Shown here: positions 2,810-45,858 of the stretch, in pieces
How the letters are laid out: each line of letters begins with the position of its first letter
How positions within the stretch are numbered: the first letter of the stretch is position 1
Assembly: GCA_002720855.1 (NCBI GenBank)
Contig: PBIN01000005.1
Coordinates: 1 to 64,000 of the forward strand
DNA length: 64,000 bases
Origin: Rhodospirillaceae bacterium
Lineage (GTDB): Bacteria > Pseudomonadota > Alphaproteobacteria > MPNO01 > UBA2964
Reading direction: 5' to 3'
Made by a program: the position numbers and the translations under genes
The notes under the pieces: generated by a model
What the model was told of the DNA's origin: nothing
Seen by the model: the letters and a program-made list of their open reading frames with translations, nothing else
Database searches by the model: none

Positions 2810-4072
2810 ATGAGACGTGTCGTAATCACCGGCATTGGTATGGTCAGTCCTCTGGGCTCTGGTGCAGAGACCAGTTGGCAACGACTGGTGAACGGTGAAT
2901 GTGGGATTGATAAGGTCGAATCCTTTGACGTCTCAGACCTGCCTGTCAAAATTGGCGCTGAGGTACCACTGGGTGAAGAATCTGATGGGTGCTTTAATTT
3001 CGACAACTGGGTTGACGCCAAAGACCGCCGCAAAAACGATAATTTTATAATTTTTGGCATCGGTGCGGCTTCGCAGGCAATTGCGGATTCTGGCTGGCAG
3101 CCTAAAGACGAAGAGGAGTGCGCCCGAACGGGCGTAATGATCGGGTCGGGGATAGGGGGGTTGCCGGGCATTTATGACGCCTCTGTTGCCTTATTCGAGA
3201 AAGGGCCGAGGCGCGTTTCTCCATTCTTCATTCCTTCTACATTAATCAACCTGGTTTCAGGCCAGGTTTCCATCCGTTATGGCCTCACTGGGCCCAACCA
3301 CGCAGTTGCGACAGCGTGTTCCACCGGCGCGCATTCAATCGGCGATGCTGCCCGGCTTATTCAGTTCGACGATGCCGATGTCATGATCGCAGGTGGTGCT
3401 GAAGCAGCCATTTGTCGTATTGGAATCGCAGGTTTCGCTGCTGCACGTGCCCTTGCAAACAAATTTAACGACAGTCCCAAGGAAGCTTCACGACCATGGG
3501 ATCAGGACCGTGATGGATTTGTCATGGGTGAAGGCGCAGGTGTGGTTGTGCTTGAGGAGCTTGAACACGCCAAGAAACGCGGCGCAAAAATTTATGCGGA
3601 AATTGTGGGGTATGGCCTTTCAGGCGATGCCCATCATGTTACTGCACCGGCTGAAGATGGTGCCGGGGCAACACGGGCGATGAAGATGGCCATCAAAAGA
3701 GCCGGGGCCAATCCAGAGGATATCGACTACATCAATGCCCATGGCACGTCGACGCCACTTGGGGACGAAATTGAACTCGGAGCCGTAAAACGCTTATTTG
3801 GCGAGCATGCATATTCATTGTCGATGTCATCAACCAAATCCGCAATTGGCCACCTGCTTGGCGCAGCAGGTGCGGTAGAAGCTGTTTTCTCAATCCTGGC
3901 TATTCGCGATGGTGTGGCGCCCCCGACTTTGAATTTGCATAATCCTTCCGAAGGGTGTGATATCGACCTTGTGGCACACTCCGCGAAGGAACGCCCAATT
4001 AAGGTCGCGATGTCGAATTCTTTCGGGTTTGGCGGTACCAACGCGACTCTCATTTTCAAAGCAGTATCCTGA
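2810..4072 (+). CDS. fabF: 3-oxoacyl-ACP synthase II (KAS II)
   Basis: FabF condenses malonyl-ACP with acyl-ACP. At 420 residues it has the thiolase-fold Cys-His-His triad: Cys170 in ATACSTGAHS, His312 in NAHGTSTPLGD and His349 in KSAIGHLLGAAG. The N-terminus MRRVVITGIGMVSPLG is standard. It ends in TGA only two bases before mltG, and this use of TGA shows TGA is a normal stop in this genome. Confidence 0.97.
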   Translation: MRRVVITGIGMVSPLGSGAETSWQRLVNGECGIDKVESFDVSDLPVKIGAEVPLGEESDGCFNFDNWVDAKDRRKNDNFIIFGIGAASQAIADSGWQPKDEEECARTGVMIGSGIGGLPGIYDASVALFEKGPRRVSPFFIPSTLINLVSGQVSIRYGLTGPNHAVATACSTGAHSIGDAARLIQFDDADVMIAGGAEAAICRIGIAGFAAARALANKFNDSPKEASRPWDQDRDGFVMGEGAGVVVLEELEHAKKRGAKIYAEIVGYGLSGDAHHVTAPAEDGAGATRAMKMAIKRAGANPEDIDYINAHGTSTPLGDEIELGAVKRLFGEHAYSLSMSSTKSAIGHLLGAAGAVEAVFSILAIRDGVAPPTLNLHNPSEGCDIDLVAHSAKERPIKVAMSNSFGFGGTNATLIFKAVS

Positions 4073-4074
4073 AG

Positions 4075-5073
4075 ATGATGCGGCGGACCGTCGTCCGCAT
4101 GCTCCTCGTTCTGAGCGCAATTTTTTTAATCTTCGGGACGGCGACTTTTTTGATCGCCAAAGATCATTTTTTGCGTCCGGGGCCTCTCCAGACCTCAATG
4201 ACCATCATCATCGAGAGGGGGGGAGGTGTTGGCAAAATCGCCGCATATCTCAAAGATGCGGGGGTTATCGAGAACGCAGTGCTGTTTCGTCTCGGCGTGC
4301 GTTATGAGGGTTTAGCCTCGAAACTCAAAGCCGGTGAGTATGTTTTTCCTGCGCATGCAAGCATGCGTTCCGTGGCAGCGATAATTGCTTCAGGCAAAAC
4401 AGTTAAGCGACGTCTCACTATCGCTGAGGGCTTGCTTGCAGTTCAAATTAAAAAAATTGTACTGGCCGTGCCTGGCCTAACGGGAGAGGTTCCTGAATCA
4501 TATTGGCAGGATGGTACGCTTTTGCCAGAAACCTATTTCTATTCGTATGGCGATAGCCGTCTTTCCGTAATTAAACGGATGCAGGAGCAGCTAAAGAAAG
4601 TGCTCTCTCGTACCTGGGCGCAGCGTTCGACCTCGGTACAGCTGAAATCGCCAGAAGAGGCATTGATACTCGCTTCTATTATTGAAAAAGAAACGGGTAA
4701 AGCATCTGAACGTGCTCATATTTCAGGCGTGTTTCACAATCGGCTTCGACGACGAATGCCGTTGCAATCTGATCCCACGGTGGTTTATGGCGTCACGAAT
4801 GGGAAGAGGGTTCTCAATCGTCCCCTTACGAAAGCGGATTTGCGTACGCCTTCGCCATACAACACTTACCTGAACAATGGATTGCCACCCGCGCCAATCG
4901 CAAACGCCGGATTGGCGGCAATTCGCGCTGCGGTAATGCCAATAACAACAACCGATCTCTATTTTGTTGCCGATGGCAAAGGTGGGCATGCTTTTGCGCG
5001 AACGCACAGAGAACACAATCGAAATGTTGCGAAATGGCGTAAAATTCAACGGAAAGTCCGCGACAGAAAATAG
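4075..5073 (+). CDS. mltG: Endolytic murein transglycosylase (YceG-like)
   Basis: MltG cleaves nascent peptidoglycan strands at the outer face of the inner membrane and is thought to set glycan chain length. The 332-residue protein has one N-terminal membrane segment (about 8-28), a LysM-like region, and a YceG domain with LLPETYFYSYGD near 149-160. The catalytic Glu lies in SIIEKETG (Glu204). Two adjacent ATG codons (4075, 4078) are possible starts. It is tightly coupled to fabF with a two-base gap. Confidence 0.94.
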   Translation: MMRRTVVRMLLVLSAIFLIFGTATFLIAKDHFLRPGPLQTSMTIIIERGGGVGKIAAYLKDAGVIENAVLFRLGVRYEGLASKLKAGEYVFPAHASMRSVAAIIASGKTVKRRLTIAEGLLAVQIKKIVLAVPGLTGEVPESYWQDGTLLPETYFYSYGDSRLSVIKRMQEQLKKVLSRTWAQRSTSVQLKSPEEALILASIIEKETGKASERAHISGVFHNRLRRRMPLQSDPTVVYGVTNGKRVLNRPLTKADLRTPSPYNTYLNNGLPPAPIANAGLAAIRAAVMPITTTDLYFVADGKGGHAFARTHREHNRNVAKWRKIQRKVRDRK

Positions 5074-5162
5074 TGCAAATTGACAAAAGAGATTTCGCCC
5101 ATTAAGGGCAATACCGAGGCGGCCCGTGGACAATATCCACCTATGGCCGCGATTTCGATTAA

Positions 5163-5276
5163 CTTGAGGAAATCATTAAAAAAGAAGCTGAAGCCGCGAC
5201 GGAGCAAGTTATGGAGATAGCGACAACATACGGCATGGATGTTATCGCCGCGCTCGCCATTTTAATTGTCGGTTGA
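5163..5276 (+). pseudogene. 5' remnant of mscS, cut off by an in-frame TGA
   Basis: In the same frame as the downstream channel ORF, this stretch encodes a good N-terminus for an MscS channel, with YGMDVIAALAILIVG matching the first transmembrane helix. It stops at TGA (5274-5276), exactly where a hydrophobic residue of TM1 is expected; a TGG-to-TGA change would explain it. No ATG, GTG or TTG precedes it in frame except ATG 5211. An ATG at 5143 lies in another frame and would need a one-base shift near 5160. The 5' part therefore carries a nonsense codon and possibly a frameshift. Confidence 0.7.
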
Positions 5277-6005
5277 ATGATTGCCGGTTGGGCCGGTCGC
5301 AAAACTAGGTCTCTTCTGTCGAAGTCCGGGAAGGTTGACGAAACACTTATACCTTTCTTGAGCAGTATCGTCCGTTACATCATTTTGATTTTCATGATCA
5401 TCGCGGTACTCGGGAAATTCGGTGTCCAGACTGCAAGTATCATTGCCGTCCTCGGTACGGTTGGTTTGGCTGTCGGGTTGGCCCTGCAGGGGACGTTGTC
5501 GCACTTTGCTGCTGGGGTAGTTCTTCTGATTTTGCGTCCCTTTAAAATAGGCGAAGTTATTGATGCTGGAGGAAAGGTCGGTGCAGTAGAAGAAATTGGC
5601 CTGTTTGCAACAAACCTCAAAACCGCAGATGGCATATTTGTTTACGTTCCAAATGGCTCTTTGCTCGGCGCTGCAATTACTAATTTTTCGCGCAATGCCA
5701 CACGCCGTATCGATATAACTGTTGGGATTTCCTATACCGACGATATTCCGAAATCGCTCTCTGCAGCGCAGGCATTAATGGACTCTGACAGCCGAATATT
5801 AAAAGATCCAGAGTCGCAAACGATGGTGATGTCGCTTGGCGATAGCGCGGTCAACATTCATATGCGTTGTTGGACGACTGGTGACGATTACTGGGATGTC
5901 CTGTTTGATCTTAACAAGGGTATCAAAGAACGATACGACGCAGAGGGTATATCGATCCCGTTTCCGCAACGCGACATTCATATTGTCGAACATAAGAAAG
6001 ACTAA
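5277..6005 (+). CDS. mscS: Small-conductance mechanosensitive channel, N-terminally truncated
   Basis: MscS channels open under membrane tension to release solutes during hypo-osmotic shock. From the ATG directly after the TGA, 242 residues remain: part of TM1, TM2 (about 28-46), the pore helix TM3 (about 50-85, AVLGTVGLAVGLALQG) and the cytoplasmic beta and alpha/beta domain ending FPQRDIHIVEHKKD. E. coli MscS has 286 residues, and most of TM1 is lost here. The rest is well preserved without further stops, so the break is recent, a sequencing error, or bypassed by reinitiation at TGAATG. Without TM1 a normal channel is doubtful. Confidence 0.75.
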   Translation: MIAGWAGRKTRSLLSKSGKVDETLIPFLSSIVRYIILIFMIIAVLGKFGVQTASIIAVLGTVGLAVGLALQGTLSHFAAGVVLLILRPFKIGEVIDAGGKVGAVEEIGLFATNLKTADGIFVYVPNGSLLGAAITNFSRNATRRIDITVGISYTDDIPKSLSAAQALMDSDSRILKDPESQTMVMSLGDSAVNIHMRCWTTGDDYWDVLFDLNKGIKERYDAEGISIPFPQRDIHIVEHKKD

Positions 6006-6034
6006 ACGGTATATACTCCTTGGTCGCGGCGGGA

Positions 6035-6796
6035 TTATTCCTTTTCCGCGACCTTTGGCATCAGCCGATCTGAAATGGAAGGCGGCAGGCTGCCAAAAAG
6101 CCATGCCAGAAAATACATTCGCCACGGAAATGCGATGCGGGCGGCGTTCTTTTCCAATCCGCGTTGTATGATTTTTGCTGCTCTTTTGCCCGACATCATA
6201 AGGGGCATCGGGAATGGATTGTTTGCCGTCATACGGCTTTCAACGAAACCGGGGCAGATTACGGACACCTTGACCCCCTTTGGTGCGTAACGTCCCCGCA
6301 ATCCTTCTCCCCAAATGCGAACCGCGGCCTTGGATGCCGCGTAGGCTGGGGTGCCGGCAAATCCTCGAAAAGACGCCAGGGAACTCATAATTGCAACCTG
6401 ACCGGATCCACGTTTTTCCATAAATTCCAGCGCTGGCAAAACTGTGTGAAGAACGCCGTTGATGTTGGTTTCGAAAATTTTATATGCCGCTTCCGAACCT
6501 TGACCCGCGCCGTCCGCTCCACCAGCTATGCCGGCATTTGCGATGACGAGATCGAGTGGCATTCGCCCGCTAATGTCAGAAATCCAATTCGAGACGGCAA
6601 CTCTTTCGGTCACATCGATAATTTTTGTTTCTACTTTCGCACCGTGTCCCTCGCATTTGATGGCAATTTTTTGGAGCCGTTCAGCATCTCGGCCAGATAG
6701 AGCCAAGAAGGTGCGGGGCTTCGCATAAGCAATAGCAAGCGCGGCTCCAATCCCACTTGATGCTCCCGTGATAAGAACTGATTTGTCTATTTCCAT
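6035..6796 (-). CDS. SDR family NAD(P)-dependent oxidoreductase
   Basis: This 253-residue classical short-chain dehydrogenase has TGASSGIG at 10-17, NAG at 87-89, Ser138/139, and Tyr152-x3-Lys156 (YAASK). The C-terminal part (AARIAFPWRMYFLAWLFGSLPP) resembles the membrane-associated tails of SDRs related to DltE/YqjQ. The substrate cannot be read from sequence. It lies on the opposite strand between mscS and yicC, splitting the usual mltG-yicC neighbourhood, and its start faces yicC across about 86 bases that must hold both promoters. Confidence 0.85.
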   Translation of the reverse strand: MEIDKSVLITGASSGIGAALAIAYAKPRTFLALSGRDAERLQKIAIKCEGHGAKVETKIIDVTERVAVSNWISDISGRMPLDLVIANAGIAGGADGAGQGSEAAYKIFETNINGVLHTVLPALEFMEKRGSGQVAIMSSLASFRGFAGTPAYAASKAAVRIWGEGLRGRYAPKGVKVSVICPGFVESRMTANNPFPMPLMMSGKRAAKIIQRGLEKNAARIAFPWRMYFLAWLFGSLPPSISDRLMPKVAEKE

Positions 6797-6882
6797 TTAC
6801 GCCTCGGTTGCTGGCCTTGTTGGCTAGGGCACCCGCGATTATAGTGCGCGCTCAAAACCGAATTCTACGTTACGGGGTATTT

Positions 6883-7770
6883 GTGACCGTATCCAGTATG
6901 ACGGGGTTTGCCCGGGTCGAAGGTACAGAGGACGGCTATAGCTGGGCCTGGGAAGTTCGCAGTGTGAACGCCCGATCACTCGATGTAAGGATTCGACTTC
7001 CATCGGGTATGGACCGGCTGGAAGCTGGAATAAGGAAAAAAGTTTCCGACAAATTAAATCGTGGAAATATATCCGCGACGCTAGTGATTGCCCGCCCCCC
7101 ACGAAAACAAGAAGTCGTCATAAATTCTGAAATACTTGAACAAGTCCTTTCCATTTCTAACCAGATGAGTGAATCCGATGATATCGCACGACCCCGCGTT
7201 GACGGGTTGTTGTCTGTACGCGGCGTTATTGAACTTCAGGAAGAGGAAGAAACCGACGAAGAAAAGACAAAGCTTGATGCAGAAGTAGAAAAAGCATTTG
7301 AGGCCGCACTCGACGGCCTTGTCGAGAACAGAGAGTCTGAAGGTAAACGGTTATTGGACTCTATCATCAGTCACCTGGACGAAATAGCCGGTTACGTTGA
7401 CGATGCCGCCAATATTGATGCTGCACAACCTAAAGCGATTGCAAATAAATTGCGTGAACAGGTACGCGATCTTGCAGGTGAGGTTTCGGGAGTCACCGAA
7501 GACAGGTTGGCCCAGGAGGTCGCTTTGCTGGCAACCAAGGCAGATATTCGCGAGGAATTGGATCGATTGTCTGCCCATGTCGCGGGCGCACGGGATTTGT
7601 TGGCGGCGGGTTCACCGGTTGGCAGAAAACTGGATTTTCTTTGTCAGGAGTTTAACCGCGAGGCAAATACCGTTTGTTCGAAGTCCTCCGATTTGGATTT
7701 GACCCGTGTCGGCCTCGAGTTGAAGGCGGTTATCGAACGTCTCCGTGAACAAATTCAAAATATAGAGTAG
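6883..7770 (+). CDS. yicC: YicC family endoribonuclease
   Basis: YicC proteins are conserved endoribonucleases; the E. coli member affects degradation of small RNAs. This 295-residue protein has the family N-terminus SSMTGFAR, a central acidic linker (EEEETDEEKTK), and the C-terminal DUF1732 signature GRKLDFLCQEFNREANT. I chose GTG 6883, which has GGGG six bases upstream and gives VTVSSMTGFAR; a TTG at 6808 would add 25 residues foreign to the family. gmk follows at 12 bases, the usual pairing. Confidence 0.92.
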   Translation: MTVSSMTGFARVEGTEDGYSWAWEVRSVNARSLDVRIRLPSGMDRLEAGIRKKVSDKLNRGNISATLVIARPPRKQEVVINSEILEQVLSISNQMSESDDIARPRVDGLLSVRGVIELQEEEETDEEKTKLDAEVEKAFEAALDGLVENRESEGKRLLDSIISHLDEIAGYVDDAANIDAAQPKAIANKLREQVRDLAGEVSGVTEDRLAQEVALLATKADIREELDRLSAHVAGARDLLAAGSPVGRKLDFLCQEFNREANTVCSKSSDLDLTRVGLELKAVIERLREQIQNIE

Positions 7771-7782
7771 AGCAGGGGTTAA

Positions 7783-8421
7783 ATGGCTTCCAACAAAATA
7801 GCACGGCGTGGTTTGATGTTGGTGCTTTCTTCGCCTTCGGGCGCAGGAAAGACAACGATTTCCCGAATGCTTCTGGAACGCGATCCCAATCTATCGATGT
7901 CGATTTCAACGACGACGCGCCCTATACGGCCGGGTGAAGAAGACGGGCGGGACTATTTTTTCGTTGATCCAACCGAATTCAATTTGATGGTCAACCGGCA
8001 GGAATTCTTGGAGCATGCAAAGGTGTTCGGGAATTATTATGGAACTCCGCGGGCGGCTGTAGAATCAGCTCTTTCATCTGGTTCGGACGTTATATTCGAC
8101 ATCGACTGGCAAGGCGCACAACAACTCGGACAGGCGGCAAGAGAAGACCTTGTAAGCGTTTTTATTTTACCGCCCTCTACCGAAGAACTTGATCGACGGC
8201 TACACAGTCGAGCGCAGGATACCGACGATGTTGTAGCGGCTCGGATGGCGAAAGCTCCGGATGAGATGAGTCATTGGGCGGAATATGATTTTATTGTCGT
8301 CAACGAGGATATCGAGAAGAGTGTTGCGCAAGTTCAGGCGATACTTGCAGCTGAACGATTGCGACGGCAAAGGCAAATAGGGCTAACTGAATTCGTCAAA
8401 CGTTTACAGGAAGGTTATTAG
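7783..8421 (+). CDS. gmk: Guanylate kinase
   Basis: It phosphorylates GMP to GDP with ATP. The 212-residue protein has the P-loop SSPSGAGKTT at 16-25, the GMP-binding stretch STTTRPIRPGEEDGRDYFF, and FDIDWQGAQQL. AGCAGGGG precedes the ATG. Its last bases overlap the end of the convergent rsmA by four bases. Confidence 0.97.
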   Translation: MASNKIARRGLMLVLSSPSGAGKTTISRMLLERDPNLSMSISTTTRPIRPGEEDGRDYFFVDPTEFNLMVNRQEFLEHAKVFGNYYGTPRAAVESALSSGSDVIFDIDWQGAQQLGQAAREDLVSVFILPPSTEELDRRLHSRAQDTDDVVAARMAKAPDEMSHWAEYDFIVVNEDIEKSVAQVQAILAAERLRRQRQIGLTEFVKRLQEGY

Positions 8422-30351: not shown

Positions 30352-30384
30352 AAAATAGTAATTTTGTCAAATGGGGTTGAAAGC

Positions 30385-31017
30385 ATGAATTCGAAGACGA
30401 CTGCTCTAAGAATTTTATCCATATTTTCATTGCTCTCTTTTCTGGCGGGTTGTGCCGTGCCGTCCACGCTCAATCTTGCTGGTTATGCAGTAGAAGGGGC
30501 AACTTTCCTGCAAACGGGAAAATCGGTTTCTGATCATGCCGTGTCGGCGGTCACCGGCCAAGATTGCCGATTAATACGTGGCGTTACCAAGGGGACTCTG
30601 TGTAAGAAAAGTGAAGATGCTCTTGAAAACCAAGTCACTAAAGAAAACAGCAAGTCAGGAAATGACCGGCAAGCGAAAAATGGCTCCCGAAATGATAAGA
30701 AGCATCAGCAATCGGCAAAGCTCAATCAGAAAGTTACGTCTTCGAAATGGATTGTCGTCGTCGGTACGTTTCCCGATTTACTGATGGCAAAAAAATCTGC
30801 CACCGCATTTGCACCGCTAAAGACCCTTATCGTAACCGCTGTTGATGACGGCGAGGTTATTTATAGGGTTACGTCGATGCCGTTTGACATTGCTGACGCC
30901 GAAGACATGAAAGATAAATTTGTCGGCAACGAAAACCCACACGTTTCGCTGGCACCCGTTTGCCCGCAGTGGATGCAAGATGACAAATGTATCGTGATTG
31001 ACCACGAAGTAGGTTGA
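30385..31017 (+). CDS. Lipoprotein with a SPOR-like C-terminal domain
   Basis: The 210-residue protein has a lipoprotein signal with lipobox LAGC (20-23), a Cys-containing middle section, a highly charged low-complexity linker rich in Lys, Asn, Gln and Ser, and a compact C-terminal domain (SKWIVVVGTFPDLLMAKKSATAF...YRVTSMPF) resembling SPOR repeats that bind denuded peptidoglycan. I use ATG 30385; a TTG at 30364 adds seven residues before the signal. The precise function is unknown. Confidence 0.72.
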   Translation: MNSKTTALRILSIFSLLSFLAGCAVPSTLNLAGYAVEGATFLQTGKSVSDHAVSAVTGQDCRLIRGVTKGTLCKKSEDALENQVTKENSKSGNDRQAKNGSRNDKKHQQSAKLNQKVTSSKWIVVVGTFPDLLMAKKSATAFAPLKTLIVTAVDDGEVIYRVTSMPFDIADAEDMKDKFVGNENPHVSLAPVCPQWMQDDKCIVIDHEVG

Positions 31018-31048
31018 TGACTGCCGGGTGACGAATCATTTCAAACCT

Positions 31049-31756
31049 CTATTCTGCAGCGGATTTGGTTGATTGAAAGCCTGACTGCTTGCGGCGTTTA
31101 TTGTAGTACATCGCCATGTCGGCCCGATGGATAAGATCTTCTACGGTGTCATGTGGGCCATACGGCTCGACACCGATACTTACTTCCAGACTAATATCCT
31201 TGCCGCGATAAACGGTTCCTGCACTGTCCAGCATCCACTGGATTGTACGCATCCTGCGGGCGCCATCTTTCCACGACGTGTTTACAAGAACGACGCCAAA
31301 TTCATCGCCGCCAAGGCGGCCAATAACATCAATTTCGCGAACTGAGTTTTTAAGTGCCTGAGCCGCACATCTCAATAGATCGTCTCCGGCCGTATGACCA
31401 AACTCGTCATTAACGGCTTTCAGATTGTCGAGGTCACAATACCCAACGACACCTGTTTCTCCATAGCGGCGTGCTCTGGCGATGACACGATCAAATTGAT
31501 TTTCAAAAACCCGGCGGTTTGGCAGCTTTGTTAGAGGTTCAGTAGAAGACAGATTTTCGAGTTCTGCAATTCGCTCCCGTTGAGCAGCAATTCTTTGCTC
31601 GCTCTCCGCTGCGTATTGGAGCGCGCGTTCAACAATTGTTTGCTCGCGCTGGTCTTCATTATTCGGTAGATCCCGAACCAGCTCTTCTGAAAGAACGCCG
31701 ATCTTCTTCAAGAGTACCGAATCGCTCGCTAGATGAGGCGTCATGAATGTATCCAT
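31049..31756 (-). CDS. Diguanylate cyclase (GGDEF)
   Basis: It makes cyclic di-GMP from two GTP. The 235-residue cytoplasmic protein has a short N-terminal region with a coiled coil (about 35-70), then a GGDEF domain: EPLTKLPNRRVF, CDLDNLKAVNDEFGH, and GGDEF at 149-153. The inhibitory I-site RxxD (Arg140-Asp143) sits five residues before GGDEF, so product inhibition is likely. No recognised sensory domain is visible, and the enzyme may be controlled through coiled-coil dimerisation. Confidence 0.93.
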   Translation of the reverse strand: MDTFMTPHLASDSVLLKKIGVLSEELVRDLPNNEDQREQTIVERALQYAAESEQRIAAQRERIAELENLSSTEPLTKLPNRRVFENQFDRVIARARRYGETGVVGYCDLDNLKAVNDEFGHTAGDDLLRCAAQALKNSVREIDVIGRLGGDEFGVVLVNTSWKDGARRMRTIQWMLDSAGTVYRGKDISLEVSIGVEPYGPHDTVEDLIHRADMAMYYNKRRKQSGFQSTKSAAE

Positions 31757-31881
31757 TAAAATAGCCCGTATTTCGCGAAATAGTCATATACACAAGTAGC
31801 TTGGGCTATATATATGCAAGTAACATGCCATAACTAAATCATGTAAAATCAATAGCTTATAATATTTTTGGTGGTGTTAAG

Positions 31882-45074: not shown

Positions 45075-45858
45075 ATCGTCCTGCTTTGAGGATAGAAATC
45101 AGTCGGGAGAGTTCGGCGGCAATTTGCCGATCTTGACTGGACGGTGTGCGCGGTGCCAATGCGGCACGTCGTAATTTCTCCAGTTTGAAAACGGTTGCGG
45201 AAACATCTCCGCGAATTAGCGACGCATCAAATTTTACAATTCCCGATACTGCGAATTGGCGGTTTAACGGCCCTCGTACATAATAATATTGTGGAAATGA
45301 AGCATATGGCTGGCCGGTCCTGAAATGATCCATTTCATGCCTCGTCACCTCTCGGTGACGTCGCTGCAATTGCTCCATTAAAGCGATCTCGCGGGCGGTC
45401 AGCCCTCTCGTATCAACGGCGGCCCCAGATTTTTTTGCCCGCGCTTCATCTCTCAATATTGAATCAATCTCGATTTGTTGGCGGTGAGCGCGAGATTGGT
45501 GGTCTGCCCCATTCTGTAAATGGTCGAGCAAATGTGTATTGTATCCGTGATGTTTGGAAAGTCGCGGTGTGATGCTCTTTGGACGTTTTGCCTCGATGTT
45601 AGGCGAAGGCGAAGGTGGAGTGGTAATAACACTTTTCGGGATATCCACCTTTTCAGTATCCGCGGGACCAATTTGGATTATCTTGCCGTCGCTACCGCGT
45701 TTCAATCTTCCAATTTCCGCGGGAGACGGCGGCAATCCCTGTTTTTGCAGTTCGTTTGCTTGCTCCTGGCCCAAAGCCGGCAAAGTTGGCGCAATACAGA
45801 TTAGTAAATAGATAATTATTGAAGGGACGACGCGCGCAGCCCAATCGGTCAGGTGCAA
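45073..45858 (-). CDS. SprA-related putative metalloprotease, exported
   Basis: The 261-residue protein has a signal peptide (about 1-30, PALG-QE), a Pro-rich low-complexity section, and a C-terminal SprA-related catalytic domain (about 150-255): HEMDH at 174-178 is an HExxH zinc site, followed by YYYVRGPLNRQFAVSGIVKFD and LRRAALAPRTPSSQDRQIAA, which are family marks. The start codon is TTG, and a shorter start is possible. The substrate is unknown. Confidence 0.78.
   Translation of the reverse strand: MHLTDWAARVVPSIIIYLLICIAPTLPALGQEQANELQKQGLPPSPAEIGRLKRGSDGKIIQIGPADTEKVDIPKSVITTPPSPSPNIEAKRPKSITPRLSKHHGYNTHLLDHLQNGADHQSRAHRQQIEIDSILRDEARAKKSGAAVDTRGLTAREIALMEQLQRRHREVTRHEMDHFRTGQPYASFPQYYYVRGPLNRQFAVSGIVKFDASLIRGDVSATVFKLEKLRRAALAPRTPSSQDRQIAAELSRLISILKAGR

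What the first reader, a model, noticed from the sequence alone, without database searches (positions are those of the whole stretch)
5163..6005. mscS interrupted by a TGA at the centre of TM1 with an immediate ATG restart
The frame upstream of TGA 5274-5276 encodes TM1 of an MscS channel (AALAILIVG), and the same frame continues for 242 intact codons. TGG (Trp) to TGA is the simplest change. TGA is a normal stop elsewhere (fabF), so recoding is unlikely. The ATG directly after the stop (TGAATG) would allow reinitiation, and a possible second lesion lies near 5160, where the best upstream ATG (5143) is out of frame. It is a fresh pseudogene, a sequencing error, or an unusual two-part channel.
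Basis: partly seen in the sequence, partly recalled or inferred. Interest (0 to 1): 0.6.

Follow-up and report, generated by a model that had tools for sequence, protein, structure and literature searches.

The report
Freshly broken salt-shock channel gene
In this bacterium a gene for a pressure-release channel appears to have recently lost its start signal and gained an early stop, and several close relatives have damaged or lost the same gene, so it is most likely an ordinary case of gene decay caught early.

Summary
The TGA at 5274-5276 is real and in frame, inside the first transmembrane helix of a small MscS channel. Best reading: a recent pseudogene. The three congeners in which the gene is recognisable have TGG there and an ATG start aligned with window ATT 5175-5177. 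So the second lesion is a lost start codon, not a frameshift near 5160. The ATG after the stop is an ancestral Met codon, not an evolved restart. Both sides of the stop still look strongly conserved as protein, so the damage is young. Of 57 frames compared in the window, mscS alone was found broken, which argues against sequencing error. TGA is a normal stop here and prfB is present. The genus shows a series: intact (G007), point lesions (window), 269-nt deletion (G002), and no mscS between mltG and SDR (G005, G006, G008). MscL was found in 0 of 9 genomes of the genus, several incomplete. One detail deserves a test: of the four genomes compared, only the window has a good Shine-Dalgarno site before in-frame ATG 5211, hinting that the start shifted before the stop arose. 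A split, reinitiating channel is not excluded but unlikely.

The parts
5078..5088 (+). AAATTGACAAA block, the longest identical stretch in the mltG-mscS gap; looks like a -35 element
   Evidence: identical in the window and the three aligned congeners; promoter role inferred
5166..5171 (+). GAGGAA, Shine-Dalgarno of the ancestral start, kept in the window
   Evidence: alignment; duplex energy -5.6 in the window and in all three congeners
5175..5177 (+). ATT at the ancestral start codon: lesion 1
   Evidence: ATG in G007, G002 and G003
5175..5273 (+). 33 codons of the former N-terminus with the first half of TM1
   Evidence: 76-85% identical to the three congeners; PF05552 when read through
5201..5213 (+). 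GGAG + 6 nt + in-frame ATG 5211-5213: possible replacement start site
   Evidence: duplex energy -5.8 in the window; +0.4, +0.4 and +1.1 at the same site in the congeners, where G003 has ATA instead of ATG; use inferred
5274..5276 (+). TGA in TM1: lesion 2
   Evidence: TGG in 3 of 3 congeners; W 17, F 3, L 2 in the 22 of 23 loci examined that cover it
5277..6005 (+). 242-codon remainder plus stop: second half of TM1, TM2/TM3, beta domain, C-terminal domain
   Evidence: PF21088, PF00924, PF21082 above cut-off; 89% identical to G007

Best explanation
This is a young pseudogene of a small MscS-type mechanosensitive channel in a bacterium whose named congeners are MAGs titled Alphaproteobacteria. 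Two point lesions stand in the way of the full-length product: the start codon is ATT where congeners have ATG, and a Trp codon of TM1 is TGA (both shown by alignment). Any protein started at ATG 5277 would lack half of TM1, so it should not make a normal channel (inferred). The genus seems to be losing this channel, plausibly because its way of life rarely meets sudden dilution (inferred; habitat not tested).
For: Two lesions relative to 3 of 3 congeners. An orthologue with an open frame of 291 codons and the same gene order exists (G007). Protein conservation is alike on both sides of the stop: G000-G007 pN 0.068 and pS 0.537 in 32 codons upstream, 0.064 and 0.772 in 241 codons downstream, so both halves were selected as protein until recently. 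Other inactivations in the genus: a 269-nt deletion in G002, window 5697-5965, leaving 147 codons after the aligned Met; and no mscS match between mltG and SDR in G005, G006 and G008. G009, of another genus, has mscS next to SDR, so presence is probably ancestral. MscL in 0 of 9 genomes of the genus, own included.
Against: Relaxed selection is not visible. Window-only amino-acid changes are 4 of 131 downstream codons (other lineages 3 of 130, 1 of 128, 4 of 131) and 3 of 26 upstream codons (others 2 of 25, 0 of 23, 3 of 26). That fits a young lesion but also a gene still in use. The ribosome-binding site at ATG 5277 (-2.3) is weak but not out of range: 14 of 37 approximate gene starts in the window score weaker. 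ATT can start translation weakly in E. coli (recalled). No reads, RNA or protein data; the lesions are seen in one assembly only. MscL absence is from assemblies of which several are incomplete.
Confidence: 0.86

Rival explanations
1. Base-calling or assembly error: the organism has an intact gene.
For: The gene still looks selected. The window starts at a contig end, 5 kb away. The assembly is unverified.
Against: Two independent substitutions in one gene. Of 57 non-overlapping frames matched to G007, three show an in-frame stop: mscS, aspS (the stop lies before its ATG) and an antisense shadow of a gatC-like frame. Three frames were matched over less than 0.9 of their length: one runs into the window end and two proved open in the window. 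So mscS alone was found broken. A second random hit falls in the same 0.83 kb with a chance near 1.3% (inference, 831/64000). By contrast the G003 assembly, which does look error-prone, has four frame-split genes in 11 kb.
Confidence: 0.07
2. Two-part channel: a 21-codon (ATG 5211) or 33-codon (ATT 5175) leader ends at TGA and ribosomes reinitiate at the adjoining ATG to make a TM1-truncated 242-aa protein with a function.
For: TGAATG adjacency. Good Shine-Dalgarno at ATG 5211 in the window only, of four compared. The 242 codons are intact and conserved. Start-site strength at 5277 is within the range of other genes (14 of 37 weaker).
Against: Met 5277 is ancestral and its upstream duplex is much the same in all four (-2.1 to -2.3), so nothing at the restart was selected. 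None of the 22 loci covering the column has a stop there. TM1 is cut in its middle.
Confidence: 0.05
3. TGA is read as an amino acid or read through here.
For: The frame is open on both sides.
Against: TGA ends 17 of the 56 matched frames whose stop lies in the window, or 16 of 55 without the antisense shadow frame. RF2 (prfB) is present above cut-off. The start lesion would be unexplained.
Confidence: 0.02

Closest known systems
   Same: 89% identical over 242 residues, same order fabF-mltG-mscS-SDR-yicC-gmk
   Different: window copy has ATT for the start codon and TGA in TM1
Recent pseudogenes by nonsense and start loss in lineages losing a function (general knowledge)
   Same: point lesions, near-complete sequence, relatives with partial or total loss
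   Different: no detectable sequence relaxation yet; possible start shift before the stop
MscS (YggB) of Buchnera (PMC3246468, passages seen)
   Same: a small MscS in a host-associated bacterium with a reduced transporter set (whether the window's organism is host-associated was not tested)
   Different: the passages state that the four Buchnera strains keep MscS, so loss is not the rule in symbionts

Membership tests
MscS channel family | TM2/TM3, beta and C-terminal domains | tested here: met
   PF21088, PF00924 and PF21082 above curated cut-offs
MscS channel family | complete TM1 in one open frame | tested here: not met
   TGA 5274-5276 inside TM1
Pseudogene | inactivating changes relative to orthologues at the same locus | tested here: met
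   start codon and TM1 stop against three congeners
Pseudogene | relaxed selection after inactivation | tested here: inconclusive
   no excess of window-only amino-acid changes; lesion too young or gene still used
Pseudogene | no functional product | not testable with these tools
   no expression data
TGA recoding | TGA not used as stop | tested here: not met
   17 of 56 frames end in TGA, one of them an antisense shadow; prfB present

The most novel reading that the evidence does not exclude
After the original start was lost, the gene switched to ATG 5211 by gaining a Shine-Dalgarno site (a GAG codon where the three congeners have CAG), and the later TGA turned it into a leader plus a reinitiated, TM1-truncated channel that is still made and selected.
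Probability: 0.05. Interest if true: 0.5.

Novelty: new member of a known kind. Interest (0 to 1): 0.2.

Why it matters
It is one more recent pseudogene, but it sits in a graded series within one genus: intact, point lesions, partial deletion, gone. With MscL found in 0 of the 9 genomes of the genus, the genus could be used to ask when and why bacteria can do without small osmotic safety valves, and whether a start-site switch can come before final inactivation.

Tried and rejected
Frameshift near 5160 and ATG 5143 as start: rejected, because the congener alignment from the ancestral start to the stop has no gap and the shared start aligns with 5175. A second intact copy elsewhere in the genome: not found. 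The only other match is a 773-codon frame at 28% identity; PF00924 likewise gives two matches, this gene and that frame. Other premature stops in the window: two candidates dismissed (aspS; antisense of a gatC-like frame). Two frames with low coverage are open in the window. G003's one-base insertion was not counted as a biological lesion, because fabF, SDR and yicC are also frame-split in the same 11 kb. The tree from five concatenated proteins leaves the place of the window's lineage open. IQ-TREE puts G000 outside the other congeners with support 63 and groups G005, G006 and G008 with support 87. FastTree groups G000 with G002, G003 and G007 (0.983). So I claim only at least three inactivations (window, G002, mscS-less group). 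In the listings of six paper searches (one search had no hits) I saw no paper on MscS loss in this lineage; two papers were seen as passages. In the Shine-Dalgarno survey the 37 start coordinates are approximate and at least two are not start codons, so the contrast across congeners carries the argument. In one search I gave 23 of the fetched loci; left out were duplicates of the same records, low-identity paralogue loci, most loci and a few others. The alignment was in the wrong orientation and was discarded. No structure prediction was run. The start codons of the other window genes were not checked one by one.

Full report
What is there. The frame 5163-6005 carries TGA at 5274-5276, then ATG at 5277 and 242 codons before TAA. 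The 242-aa part matches the MscS families PF21088, PF00924 and PF21082 above cut-off. When the stop is read through, PF05552 (conserved TM helix) is matched across it.

Relatives. A search of 97 genomes gave an orthologue with an intact frame in a congener (G007, 89%, open frame 291), two damaged ones (G002, 92% over residues 1-143; G003, split at about residue 130), and more distant ones at 59% and below. The first is, as I recall and did not confirm, from the sponge Mycale hentscheli. The alignment with these three shows TGG at the stop in 3 of 3, and ATG in 3 of 3 where the window has ATT 5175-5177. The Shine-Dalgarno GAGGAA before it is kept (-5.6 in all four). In 23 loci chosen from those fetched, 22 cover the stop column, with W (17), F (3) or L (2). 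The ATG after the stop aligns with ATG in all three congeners, so it is an ancestral Met codon.

Age. Between the window and G007, pN is 0.068 and pS 0.537 in the 32 codons upstream, and 0.064 and 0.772 in 241 codons downstream. Downstream synonymous sites are saturated while the protein is conserved on both sides of the stop. Window-only amino-acid changes, counted where the three others agree, are 4 of 131 codons downstream (other lineages 3 of 130, 1 of 128, 4 of 131) and 3 of 26 upstream (others 2 of 25, 0 of 23, 3 of 26). The lesion codons themselves are outside these counts. If the gene had been neutral for more than a few percent of its branch, more changes would be expected (rough inference, no model fitted). 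The damage is young, or the gene is still used.

Error or real. I matched G007 frames of 100 codons or more to the window and kept 57 non-overlapping ones. Three contain a stop in the alignment: mscS; aspS, where the stop lies just before its ATG; and an antisense shadow of a gatC-like frame on the other strand (gene names recalled). Three are matched over less than 0.9 of their length. One (112-438) runs into the window end; the other two (31430-31768 and 45076-45735) are open in the window, and the first is short only because the G007 frame joins pieces of two genes that are separate here. So mscS is the only gene found broken, and it bears two lesions, which random error would rarely place together. 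I did not check the start codons of the other genes one by one.

Genetic code. TGA ends 17 of 56 matched frames whose stop lies in the window, one of them the antisense shadow, and prfB is present, so TGA is a stop here.

The genus (9 genomes held, own included). mltG is followed by mscS and then the convergent SDR gene in G000, G007, G002 and G003. In G005, G006 and G008 (two copies) mltG is followed directly by SDR with no mscS match (loci L068-L071). G001 and G004 gave no mltG match and no close mscS match, but are 72% and 67% complete. G009, of another genus, has mscS next to SDR, so presence is probably ancestral. G002 has lost 269 nt, window 5697-5965, and 147 codons remain from the aligned Met, the last few out of frame. 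G003's insertion is probably an assembly error, as three neighbours are also frame-split. MscL was found in 0 of 9 genomes of the genus and 1 of 13 of the family, with the control ringing in 10 of 14. The window's genome keeps one other MscS-family gene, with a 773-codon frame.

A possible earlier step. At in-frame ATG 5211 the window alone, of the four compared, has GGAG six bases upstream (-5.8, against +0.4, +0.4 and +1.1 in the congeners). If the start was first lost at 5175 and replaced by 5211, the gene could have stayed in use until the TGA arose, which would fit the lack of relaxed selection. It rests on one substitution and may be chance.

Verdict. Most likely an ordinary recent pseudogene in a genus that is losing this channel. 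A two-part channel would need reinitiation at a site that hardly changed (-2.1 to -2.3 in all four; 14 of 37 approximate starts in the window are weaker) and a function for a protein missing half of TM1. Nothing in the relatives examined supports it.

Noticed in passing
L034 (G003) 3216-8173: Four genes (fabF, mscS, SDR, yicC) are frame-split in 11 kb of one public MAG, which looks like uncorrected indel errors.
   Followed up: partly
window 30364-31768: In G007 one 192-codon frame joins the start of the gene at window 31768 (minus strand, diguanylate-cyclase-like by recall) to the end of the gene at 30364-31017 (plus strand). The two are separate and convergent in the window, so G007 seems rearranged or misassembled here.
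   Followed up: partly
window 5078-5088: AAATTGACAAA is identical in the window and three congeners while most of the intergenic gap has drifted; a likely -35 element. The aligned -10 region differs in the window.
   Followed up: partly
L037 and L040: Two MAGs titled Bacteroidetes encode an MscS 53-54% identical to this one, closer than many alphaproteobacterial copies: gene transfer or mis-binning.
   Followed up: no
L035 (G009), between mltG and mscS: About 2.5 kb lies between mltG and mscS in the outgroup genus where the window has about 0.1 kb.
   Followed up: no
G000:C14:175650-176312: Only other MscS-family gene found in the genome, in a 773-codon frame; each of the other 12 family members searched also has a match in a long frame of 769-890 codons.
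   Followed up: no
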